Of a stretch of DNA of 64,000 nt, positions 58,577-61,670 are shown piece after piece; the first letter of the stretch is position 1, and each line of letters opens with the position of its first letter. The notes below the pieces were generated by a model. The model had not been told where the DNA came from and ran no database searches. It saw nothing but the letters and a program-made list of their open reading frames with translations. This DNA is from Ruminococcus sp. OA3 (GTDB lineage: Bacteria; Bacillota; Clostridia; Lachnospirales; Lachnospiraceae), in contig NZ_JAKNTO010000001.1 of NCBI RefSeq assembly GCF_022440845.1, positions 1,116,001-1,180,000 on the forward strand, read 5' to 3'. The position numbers and the translations under genes are program-made.

Positions 58577-58828
58577 GTGATAGAAGAAAACAGAACATTG
58601 CTTGGGCGCATCTATGTTGTTGCAGTAGCAATTCTGATCAGTTTTTGGTGTGTGGTTGCGGCGGGGAGTATAAAATTACGGCAGCTCGCCGGAAAGCTGG
58701 AGGAGACTCAGGTACAGCTCGAGGATGTGATGGAGACGGTGCAGGGGATCGAGGTTGACAGTTTAAACGAGACGATCCGAACACTGAATAAGATCATCGA
58801 TCCCCTGAGAAAATTGATGGGTGAATAA
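58577..58828 (+). CDS. Small membrane protein with coiled coil, 83 residues
   Basis: It starts with GTG 58577 behind GGGGAACGG. One membrane segment (about residues 10-30) is followed by a predicted coiled coil (KLRQLAGKLEETQVQLEDVM). No family recognised. It is last gene of the exporter operon; its stop lies 4 bp before the IS110 element. Confidence 0.6.
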   Translation: MIEENRTLLGRIYVVAVAILISFWCVVAAGSIKLRQLAGKLEETQVQLEDVMETVQGIEVDSLNETIRTLNKIIDPLRKLMGE

Positions 58829-58975
58829 AAAGACTAACTATTAAAAGTCAAGTCCTAAACTAAATTTTTGAATGAATTGCAGAAATGCATTTCAGATATA
58901 TTTAAACTTTGAAAACTGCATGACAAACAGAGCATCTTTACAGGTGCTCAAAAAGGAGATCGGAAAGCAAAAAAG

Positions 58976-60151
58976 TTAAGCGGTTGGGATGTATGGCAGC
59001 CCGGATTTTTCTAACTGATAAATCACTCTGACAAGTTTTTTTGCTGCATGAGATACTGCAACATTATAGTGCTTACCCTCGGCCCTCTTTTTGGCGAGGT
59101 AGGCAGCGAATGTCGGATCCCAATGGCAGACAAATTTAGCCGCATTAAAAAGCGCATAGCGTAGATACCTTGAACCGCGTTTCTCCATATGGGAATAACA
59201 GGATTCCAACTGACCGGACTGATAGGTTGATGGGGATAATCCTGCATAAGCCAAAATTTTATCAGGAGAATCAAACCGGGAAAAATCGCCGACTTCAGCC
59301 AAAATCATAGCACCCATCCGGTAACTGATTCCTGGAATGGTAAGAATCGGAGAATGAATGCCATCCATGATAAGCTTTATTCCCTGTTCGATTTCATCAA
59401 TCTCGGCATTTAGCTCACCAATTAATTTCAAGGTGTGCTTGAGTTCGAGCGATTTGGCCGGCATATTTGACCCGATTGAGGTTCTGGCAGCCTCCCGAAA
59501 CAAGAGGGCGGTATCCCGTCCATAACGTCCGTTGGAGGCTTCGTGAAGCAGGTGGGTCAGTTTGGTAAGATGAGCGTAGGAAATATGGAAAGCACCGGGG
59601 AATTCGCTAAGCAAAGCAGAAACAGATGCCATATGGAGTGTGGGTACTAATTTCTCCAGTTCAGGGAAGAGAATCGTAACCAGCCGTGAAACAGAAGTTT
59701 TCAGTTTTGCCCGCTCTTTGACTTTATCAAAACGGTAACGGGTTAGTGACTTGAGTTCTTCGTTGTGATAAGATGTGTCTGAGTAGGACTTTAAGTTCAC
59801 ATCAGACATGAGCATTGTAGCAATCGTATGGGCATCAGCTTTATCCGTTTTCGTCTTTCTAAGGCTTAGACTTTTTCTGTAAAGATTGGTATGTAACGGG
59901 TTGATAACAAAGGTGGTCAGACCTTTATCAAGAAGATATCCCAAGATGTTATAACTGTAGTGTCCAGTGGCTTCAAGCCCTACTTTTACATTGGTTAACT
60001 CATCTGTAACGGATTCTATTTTCTGATAAAGTACATCAAAACCAATGCGGTTGTTTGGAATGGTAAATGCTTTGAAAAGCACTTCACCATCTGAATTCGT
60101 GATAAAGCAATCATGCTTATCCTTGGCAACATCAATGCCTGCGTATATCAT
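58976..60151 (-). CDS. IS110-family transposase (bridge-RNA-type recombinase)
   Basis: A 391-residue DEDD/serine recombinase. The RuvC-like domain has GIDVAKDKHDC, GLEATGHY and KTDKADAHTIA, supplying Asp, Glu and Asp residues. The C-terminal Transposase_20 domain has IPGISYRMGAMILAEVGD and AYAGLSPSTYQSG, where the catalytic Ser lies. The start at 60151 has AAAAGGAG upstream; a longer frame runs into the noncoding RNA region. All key segments are intact, so the element may be active. Confidence 0.95.
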   Translation of the reverse strand: MIYAGIDVAKDKHDCFITNSDGEVLFKAFTIPNNRIGFDVLYQKIESVTDELTNVKVGLEATGHYSYNILGYLLDKGLTTFVINPLHTNLYRKSLSLRKTKTDKADAHTIATMLMSDVNLKSYSDTSYHNEELKSLTRYRFDKVKERAKLKTSVSRLVTILFPELEKLVPTLHMASVSALLSEFPGAFHISYAHLTKLTHLLHEASNGRYGRDTALLFREAARTSIGSNMPAKSLELKHTLKLIGELNAEIDEIEQGIKLIMDGIHSPILTIPGISYRMGAMILAEVGDFSRFDSPDKILAYAGLSPSTYQSGQLESCYSHMEKRGSRYLRYALFNAAKFVCHWDPTFAAYLAKKRAEGKHYNVAVSHAAKKLVRVIYQLEKSGLPYIPTA

Positions 60152-60194
60152 GACAAAACTCCTTTTAAAGTATTTGATACTGTTTTTAGACCAC

Positions 60195-60381
60195 GGGATC
60201 TCTCTGCAATTGTAACCTCGTTCTAAATAAACCGTCATGCGGTATCTAACTGATTAACAAATGAACAAAGAGACTGTGGTTAGAGCCTTTTTAAAACCAT
60301 CAAGTGGTAGGAGGGATTCACTAATCCACAGTATCTAAAATCAGCATAGCGTATACCTAAGAAAAGGTAAAGAAAAGCTAT
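60195..60381 (-). ncRNA. Candidate bridge RNA of the IS110 element
   Basis: RNA read on the minus strand. A 5' hairpin (CATAGC/GCTATG, 60377-60382 with 60345-60350) is followed by a target-binding loop and a donor-binding loop. Target loop: 11-bp outer stem ACTGTGG-TTAG (60321-60332 with 60273-60283) and apical hairpin ACCA-CTTGA-TGGT. Donor loop: outer stem TCTCTTTG/CAGAGAGA (60266-60273 with 60199-60206) and apical hairpin ACCG-CATGA-CGGT. Target guides GAATCCCTCCT and TAAAAAGG fit the reconstructed target. The two loops abut, and their stem arms share base 60273. Confidence 0.75.
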
Positions 60382-60395
60382 GACTATATAATACG

Positions 60396-60418
60396 AGGAG
60401 GGATTCCCCTCCTTTTTT
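60396..60418 (+). terminator. Remaining half of the target terminator
   Basis: AGGAGGG-ATTC-CCCTCCT followed by TTTTT on the plus strand. It still terminates plus-strand transcription, but the T-rich flank for the minus strand was split off to 58823-58832 by the IS. Confidence 0.8.
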
Positions 60419-60422
60419 GCGC

Positions 60423-61670
60423 TCAGTGTTGTTTTAGCTGTTCTTCTGTTTTTCTGAAAAAATGTTTTGCCGCAAGGCCGGTTACGCACAGGATGACTGC
60501 GGAAGGGAGCAGTACAAAATAAATATTATTTGAAAAAACGTCAAACAGTATACCGTAGATAATCTGTCCCAGAGGCTGTGCACATAAGGAAATCGTTGCG
60601 GTATAAGCCATGACTTTCCCAATCATACGTTCCGGTGTCAGCTGCTGAATGATGGACAGGCAGAAAATAGAAAACACGCAGGCTGCAATCTGAATCAAAG
60701 CGAAAAAGGCGATCAGTGTTACATATCTCGGAAAAGTGCCGATGGGAATATAAAAGATCAGCCCTGCAGGAAGCAGAAACAAACCAATGCACAATATGGG
60801 AAGGTTCAGATTTCCGGTCCTGAATCTTGCTGCGGCCAGCCCGGCGATCACACTGCCGGCGAGACCGGCAAAACCCAGGATACTTTCGGCTGCACCGTAG
60901 TAACTGGCGCTCAGCCCGAGAACTGACCGTATGATAAACGGAAGCCCCACCAGAGCAACCCCCTGAACAAAAAACGCAGTGACCGATACCAGAAGCAGAG
61001 TTTTAAGAATAGAAGGCCTTACCCGGGATATAAAATGTGTACTGGCCTTCAGGTCATGTTTAACAATTTGCAAAATGTGTCCGTTTGTCTGTTGAGGTAT
61101 GTAGTCAAGCCGGATAAAATATTCGAATATGGATGTTATAAAGAAACAGATAACGCCCGCATACATGACCGGTTTTAAACCAAAAGAAGAGTAAAGCATG
61201 CTTCCGATGAAGGGGGCGGCCAGGGTAGAAACGGCGGCGATCTGGTTGACAACTGCATTTCCGCGGACGATGTTATCACCCGTCTGCATCTGAGGAATAC
61301 ATGCCTGCACCGTGGGGCTCTCAAAGGTTCCTAAAACTGACAGGGCGATAAGAGCCGTACATATCACGGTAAGGTCGCTGACGCGCCCCATCATAAGTGC
61401 CGCCAGCAGTGTGACGACACCCGATATAAAATCCAGAGCGACCATGATACTGCGTTTGTTTGCACGGTCGGCAAGTACACCGGCAAGAGGGGATAAGAGA
61501 ATGGCAGGCAGCATGGCAGCAGCCAGAAAACCGGCAAAAACAGCCGCAGAGCCCGTCACTTCCAGGACATACATTGACATTGCAAAATCAAGGATGCAAT
61601 TGCCGAACAGAGAACTTGCCTGCCCTGCGACGAGTAATGTAAAATTTTTTGTAAATAGTTTGTTTTTCAT
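60423..61670 (-). CDS. MFS transporter
   Basis: A 415-residue major facilitator protein with twelve hydrophobic segments and the loop motif GVLADRANKRSIM between segments 2 and 3. It resembles multidrug or macrolide (MefA-like) exporters. GGAGGCG precedes the start. Its promoter region is filled with repeated TTAGAT/ATCTAA boxes, so it is likely regulated. Its terminator was interrupted by the IS110 element. Confidence 0.9.
   Translation of the reverse strand: MKNKLFTKNFTLLVAGQASSLFGNCILDFAMSMYVLEVTGSAAVFAGFLAAAMLPAILLSPLAGVLADRANKRSIMVALDFISGVVTLLAALMMGRVSDLTVICTALIALSVLGTFESPTVQACIPQMQTGDNIVRGNAVVNQIAAVSTLAAPFIGSMLYSSFGLKPVMYAGVICFFITSIFEYFIRLDYIPQQTNGHILQIVKHDLKASTHFISRVRPSILKTLLLVSVTAFFVQGVALVGLPFIIRSVLGLSASYYGAAESILGFAGLAGSVIAGLAAARFRTGNLNLPILCIGLFLLPAGLIFYIPIGTFPRYVTLIAFFALIQIAACVFSIFCLSIIQQLTPERMIGKVMAYTATISLCAQPLGQIIYGILFDVFSNNIYFVLLPSAVILCVTGLAAKHFFRKTEEQLKQH

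What the first reader, a model, noticed from the sequence alone, without database searches (positions are those of the whole stretch)
60199..60272. Donor-binding loop of the same RNA resembles the element's own ends
Immediately 3' of the target loop is a second module with an 8-bp outer stem and apical hairpin ACCG-CATGA-CGGT, nearly a copy of the target loop's ACCA-CTTGA-TGGT. Its left strand has CAGTTAGAT, compared with right-end sequence ATAGTTAGTCT (AGTTAG shared). Its right strand has GAACGAG, compared with AATACGAG, the complement of the left end CTCGTATT (ACGAG shared). The match is shorter than for the target loop, but it is in the expected order.
Basis: partly seen in the sequence, partly recalled or inferred. 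Interest (0 to 1): 0.7.

Follow-up and report, generated by a model that had tools for sequence, protein, structure and literature searches.

The report
Donor loop of IS110 bridge RNA

Summary
Confirmed. The window carries a complete 1,565-bp IS110-type insertion sequence on the minus strand (58831-60397, CT core counted at both ends). Loop 60199-60273 is the donor-binding loop (DBL) of its bridge RNA. In this one sequence the match is weak: 3.7% of dinucleotide shuffles do as well in the same order. Across 100 distinct homologues the right guide (ACGAG here) is the exact complement of the element's left end in 99. Four guide types each pair with their own end type (ACGAG/CTCGT, ACAAG/CTTGT, AGTAG/CTACT, AGCAG/CTGCT); the exception is a G-T wobble. 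The left guide covaries too: eight right-end hexamers each occur as the left guide of their own RNA and almost never in another type's RNA. A sister species has both empty sites, which fixes the CT core and shows no target duplication. Joining the ends creates a promoter (TTGACT-17-TATTAT) in 93 of 95 elements. So: a new member of a known kind, with small variations (6-nt rather than 8-nt left guide, longer bulge in the right guide). A side result may be new: this clade inserts mainly into Shine-Dalgarno sites, antisense to the gene.

The parts
58831..60397 (-). Whole IS110-group element, CT core counted at both ends (1,565 bp with one core). Element 5' end at 60397, 3' end at 58831
   Evidence: Two copies with different flanks; empty sites in a sister species
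58976..60151 (-). Recombinase (391 aa), DEDD_Tnp_IS110 + Transposase_20; D7, E60, D103, D106 and S312 align with the catalytic D11/E60/D102/D105 and S241 of IS621
60199..60273 (-). Donor-binding loop (DBL) of the bridge RNA, outer stem to outer stem
60266..60273 (-). DBL outer stem, 5' arm (UCUCUUUG)
   Evidence: six pairs kept in the 64-sequence consensus
60199..60206 (-). DBL outer stem, 3' arm (CAGAGAGA)
60246..60251 (-). Left donor guide AGTTAG; [quoted passage not shown]
   Evidence: 97/98 match and covariation; eight types across wider homologues
60231..60243 (-). DBL apical hairpin ACCG-CATGA-CGGT
60217..60221 (-). Right donor guide ACGAG; complement of left end CTCGT
   Evidence: 99/100 Watson-Crick, four covarying types
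60227..60228 (-). Conserved AU upstream of the right donor guide, separated from ACGAG by a 5-nt bulge (UUAGA); inferred to pair with A13 and T14 of the left end as in IS621
   Evidence: AU invariant in the RNAs read; pairing inferred from IS621, no covariation possible because the DNA partner is constant
60216..60216 (-). Handshake base G of the DBL, opposite target position 7 (C); changes to A where the target has T
58833..58839 (-). Left donor (right end of element) AGTTAGT
58831..58832 (-). Core CT at the right end
60391..60397 (-). Right donor with core (left end of element) CTCGTAT
58846..58851 (-). TTGACT, -35 box of the junction promoter formed in the circle
   Evidence: 17-bp spacing to TATTAT/TACTAT/TATAAT in 93 of 95 junctions
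60388..60393 (-). TATTAT, -10 box of the junction promoter
60309..60319 (-). Left target guide GAATCCCTCCT, identical to the left flank of this insertion
   Evidence: guide-target matches exceed every swap
60287..60295 (-). Right target guide TTTAAAAAG, perfect for the right flank of the second copy, 7/9 for this one
60285..60286 (-). Target-loop handshake bases GC opposite donor T7 and G6; they change with the donor (GT with A6; TG or TA with A7)
60296..60308 (-). Apical hairpin of the target-binding loop (ACCA-CTTGA-TGGT)

Best explanation
[quoted passage not shown] Shown here: the element's boundaries, its CT core, the covariation of both guides with both ends, matched changes of handshake bases, the catalytic residues, and a conserved promoter-like sequence formed when the ends join. 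Inferred from IS621: the element is excised as a circle; the joined ends make a promoter that transcribes the bridge RNA; the RNA binds the recombinase; [quoted passage not shown] top strands are cut after the CT core by the serine/DEDD active site and exchanged.
For: Recombinase domains and catalytic residues. RNA upstream of the gene with two similar loops. Right guide/left end complementary in 99 of 100 distinct elements, four types; left guide/right end 97 of 98; changes coincide on the tree. Eight left-guide types across relatives down to 34% identity; relatives with a CA core carry ...TG in the right guide (ACGTG/CACGT: L009, L011). Handshake changes: target-loop GC to GT with donor G6 to A6, and to TG or TA with donor T7 to A7; DBL GU to AA where target bases are TT. 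Empty sites in a sister species. Promoter across the junction in 93 of 95.
Against: No RNA-seq or activity data. In the window alone the match has a 3.7% chance level. The number of independent changes is modest (6 for the right guide in the close set), and the strict independent-pairs sign test is underpowered (2-3 pairs).
Confidence: 0.96

Rival explanations
1. The resemblance of loop and ends is a chance match of short words; the structure serves only to regulate the recombinase gene.
For: Both matches in order occur in 3.7% of shuffles.
Against: Matched changes of guide and end in 99 of 100 and 97 of 98 elements and in eight left-guide types.
Confidence: 0.01
2. Guide and ends agree because the RNA gene and the ends descend by duplication or gene conversion from one another, not because they pair.
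For: The two sites lie in the same element and could exchange sequence; no tool result speaks for it.
Against: The right guide agrees with its end as reverse complement over only five bases, the left guide as identity over six; surrounding sequence differs; the two single deviations are G-T wobbles, which fits pairing and not copying.
Confidence: 0.02
3. The loop belongs to an IS1111-type seekRNA system with long subterminal inverted repeats.
For: Same recombinase superfamily.
Against: The RNA lies upstream of the gene; only a 3-bp ATA...TAT inverted repeat flanks the donor, not 11-13 bp.
Confidence: 0.01

Closest known systems
IS621 bridge RNA (IS110 group; Durrant et al. 2024, PMC11208160; Hiraizumi et al. 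2024, PMC11208158)
   Same: Two-loop RNA upstream of the recombinase, target loop first; CT core; left guide pairs with bottom strand, right guide with top strand; handshake bases; ATA...TAT repeat flanking the donor; promoter across the joined ends; DEDD + Ser recombinase.
   Different: Left donor guide is 6 nt and leaves out donor position 7 and the core C (IS621: 8 nt, A123-C130). The AU of the right guide is separated from the rest by 5 nt instead of 2. Short 13-nt apical hairpin. Recombinase of 391 aa, only weakly similar (phmmer 78 bits). Targets are mostly Shine-Dalgarno sites rather than REP elements.
ISEc21 and IS1111-type seekRNAs (Siddiquee et al. 2024, PMC11187229)
   Same: RNA-guided target choice by DEDD recombinases; ISEc21 is itself an IS110-group element.
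   Different: IS1111 types carry the RNA downstream and have 11-13-bp subterminal inverted repeats, absent here.
ISCro4 (PDB 9t56)
   Same: Second solved recombinase matched.
   Different: Similar level of sequence divergence as IS621; its donor loop was not compared here.

Membership tests
IS110 group (bridge RNA elements) | RuvC-like DEDD domain plus Tnp domain with catalytic serine | tested here: met
   PF01548 and PF02371; D7, E60, D103, D106, S312 align with IS621 residues
IS110 group (bridge RNA elements) | Long non-coding left end upstream of the gene, short right end | tested here: met
   246 bp upstream of the gene against about 145 bp downstream
IS110 group (bridge RNA elements) | Core dinucleotide shared by donor and target, no target duplication | tested here: met
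   CT; empty sites in sister species
IS110 group (bridge RNA elements) | Donor-binding loop pairing with both ends | tested here: met
   Covariation
IS110 group (bridge RNA elements) | Target-binding loop pairing with both flanks | tested here: met
   Mean 6.2 of 9 left and 4.5 of 6 right matches; highest of 1,000 swaps 4.7 and 3.0
IS110 group (bridge RNA elements) | Promoter formed by joined ends | tested here: met
   TTGACN-17-TATTAT/TACTAT/TATAAT in 93 of 95; activity not tested
IS110 group (bridge RNA elements) | RNA expressed and bound by the recombinase; recombination in cells | not testable with these tools
   Needs experiment
IS621 subtype | 8-nt left donor guide including donor position 7 and core C | tested here: not met
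   Guide ends at donor position 6; an A/T-T linker follows in the homologues read
IS1111 group | 11-13-bp subterminal inverted repeats, RNA downstream of the gene | tested here: not met
   Neither present (definition)

The most novel reading that the evidence does not exclude
The clade to which this element belongs is specialised on ribosome-binding sites: its bridge RNAs keep an anti-Shine-Dalgarno-like guide (consensus CYCCU followed by UUUC in target letters, the same letters as the tail of 16S rRNA) while the outer guide letters drift, so that gene starts, always abundant and conserved in sequence, are the standing target, entered antisense with the AGGAGG next to the start codon left intact.
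Probability: 0.75. Interest if true: 0.6.

Novelty: new member of a known kind. Interest (0 to 1): 0.4.

Why it matters
It shows, in an uncharacterised Clostridia lineage, that donor recognition by a bridge RNA holds with a shorter left guide than in IS621 and with natural matched donor/guide variants, including a different core dinucleotide in relatives. Such matched sets are ready-made test material for orthogonal donor loops. The Shine-Dalgarno preference would explain how a sequence-specific element can always find a site in any host of the group.

Tried and rejected
Single-sequence significance of the match: weak (3.7% of shuffles), so not used as proof. Rfam: no bridge-RNA family matched. 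Exact joined-end junction AGTTAGTCTCGTATTATA in viral contigs: none. A 1,563-bp circular record of a relative (L156, NZ_OY725734) looked like a natural excised circle, but its junction has five extra bases (CACCT), so it was not used as proof of the junction. The strict independent-pairs sign test is underpowered. Covariation of the linker base after the left guide (A/T) with a bulge base (T/A), matching the IS621 A131-U159 pair, is a single event on the tree and only suggestive. Searches of the held papers for IS110 and Shine-Dalgarno or ribosome-binding sites gave no report of such a preference; the library lacks most subscription papers.

Full report
What is there. The window lies in a 4.06-Mb genome; the named homologous loci come mainly from Lachnospiraceae and allied Clostridia. 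At 58976-60151 (minus strand) is a 391-aa recombinase with the two IS110 domains; its only solved relatives by sequence are IS621 and ISCro4, and the catalytic D, E, D, D and S line up with theirs. Two identical 1,570-bp copies exist in the genome. Their flanks differ outside a shared CT: AATCCCTC-[CT]-TTTTATTC at the window copy and ATACCTC-[CT]-TTTTAAAAG at the other. A sister species has both sites empty; the second reads through the junction without a gap, the first with small indels. This fixes the ends: left end CT-CGTATTAT (60397 downward) and right end AATAGTTAGT-CT (to 58831).

The observation. On the minus strand, between the left end and the gene, lie two similar stem-loops. A consensus fold of 64 non-redundant homologous RNAs keeps both apical hairpins, the outer stem of the donor loop (six pairs, with changes between A-U, G-U and C-G) and an inner stem UUGU/ACAA.

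Chance level. In 5,000 dinucleotide shuffles of the loop, both matches in the right order occur 184 times (3.7%).

Covariation with the left end. From 125 homologous elements (65-100% identity), 106 distinct combinations were read. In 100 with both parts, the right guide is complementary to the first five bases of the element in 99: ACGAG/CTCGT 77, ACAAG/CTTGT 12, AGTAG/CTACT 9, AGCAG/CTGCT 1; the exception ACGAG/CTTGT is a G-T wobble. On a tree of the recombinases the guide changes at least 6 times and the end 7 times, matched except for the wobble case. Relatives with a CA core have ACGTG opposite CACGT (L009, L011), so even the core is read by the right guide.

Covariation with the right end. 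AGTTAG is nearly constant in the close set, but where it changes both sides change: AGTTAA in L110 and L148, AGTCAG in L155. The one mismatch (L070, GGTTAG) is again a wobble. With relatives down to 34% identity there are eight hexamer types at the right end (AGTTAG, AGTTAA, AGTCAG, AGTTTG, AGCTGG, AGCTAG, AGTTGG, AGAATG); 118 of 123 elements carry their own hexamer followed by A/T-T in the RNA, and RNAs of other types practically never do. Three of the exceptions (L136, L163, L166) belong to the AGCTGG type; in L136 the RNA reads TGCTGG, one base off.

Handshake bases. Hiraizumi et al. (PMC11208158) found that bases next to the guides pair with the other DNA after strand exchange. Here the DBL base next to ACGAG is G where the target has C before the core, and AA where the target has TT (L139, L114, L036, L039); the target-loop bases are GC opposite donor G6 T7, GT opposite A6 T7, and TG or TA opposite G6 A7.

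How it differs from IS621. In IS621 the left donor guide is 8 nt including the core C, followed by an A-U linker. Here the guide is 6 nt and the linker follows at once, so donor position 7 and the core are not read by the left guide. In IS621 the right guide is AU-(2 nt)-rest; here it is AU-(5 nt)-ACGAG, and some distant relatives (L009, L011) have the 2-nt form AU-UU-ACGUG. The pairing of AU with A13 and T14 is inferred, because the DNA there never varies (it is also the start of the -10 box).

Promoter. TTGAC at the right end and TATTAT (or TACTAT, TATAAT) at the left end come to lie 17 bp apart when the ends join in 93 of 95 elements. This is the arrangement reported for IS621, and it may explain why the right donor is so constrained.

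A side result on targets. Of 91 distinct insertions with enough flank, 53 have an ATG-started ORF of at least 50 codons beginning 3-15 bases beyond the core on the opposite strand, against 4-16 in shifted windows; ATG peaks at 8-13 bases. The guide consensus (CTCCT in 58 of 85 guide pairs, CTTT from the core on in 58 of 85) is the complement of a Shine-Dalgarno sequence. The second copy in this genome sits in such a site; the window copy sits in a bidirectional terminator between convergent genes. No report of this preference was found in the held papers.

Verdict. The donor loop is a new member of the IS110 bridge-RNA kind with minor variations; the Shine-Dalgarno preference of the clade is the more unusual finding.

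Noticed in passing
58831-60397 and 91 homologous insertions: The clade inserts antisense into Shine-Dalgarno sites: 53 of 91 insertions have an ATG-started ORF 3-15 bases beyond the core, against 4-16 of 91 in shifted windows. The target guides resemble the anti-Shine-Dalgarno tail of 16S rRNA.
   Followed up: partly
58820-58832 and 60396-60430: The window copy has split a bidirectional intrinsic terminator (AAAAAGGAGGG-AATCCCTCCTTTTT) between two convergent genes; the left target guide matches it perfectly.
   Followed up: partly
L156 (NZ_OY725734, Monoglobus, 1,563 bp): A record filed as a circular plasmid is nothing but a circular IS110 element, probably an excised form or an assembly product; its junction has five extra bases CACCT, which resemble its left target.
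   Followed up: partly
L088, upstream of the gene: The left flank of this element is the left part of another copy's bridge-RNA gene up to its target guide (identical to the target by definition), while the right flank is unrelated: a possible recombination between guide DNA and target.
   Followed up: no
L009, L011, L164, L165, L168, L171-L175: Relatives at about 34-38% identity use a CA core; in those where the right guide was read it is ACGTG. Two (L168, L172) show CTCGT at the left end but CA at the right end, as if donor and target cores had differed.
   Followed up: no
L127/L100 and L130: Copies that keep the target loop and gene but have lost the donor loop and recognisable ends; probably decayed or recombined.
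   Followed up: no
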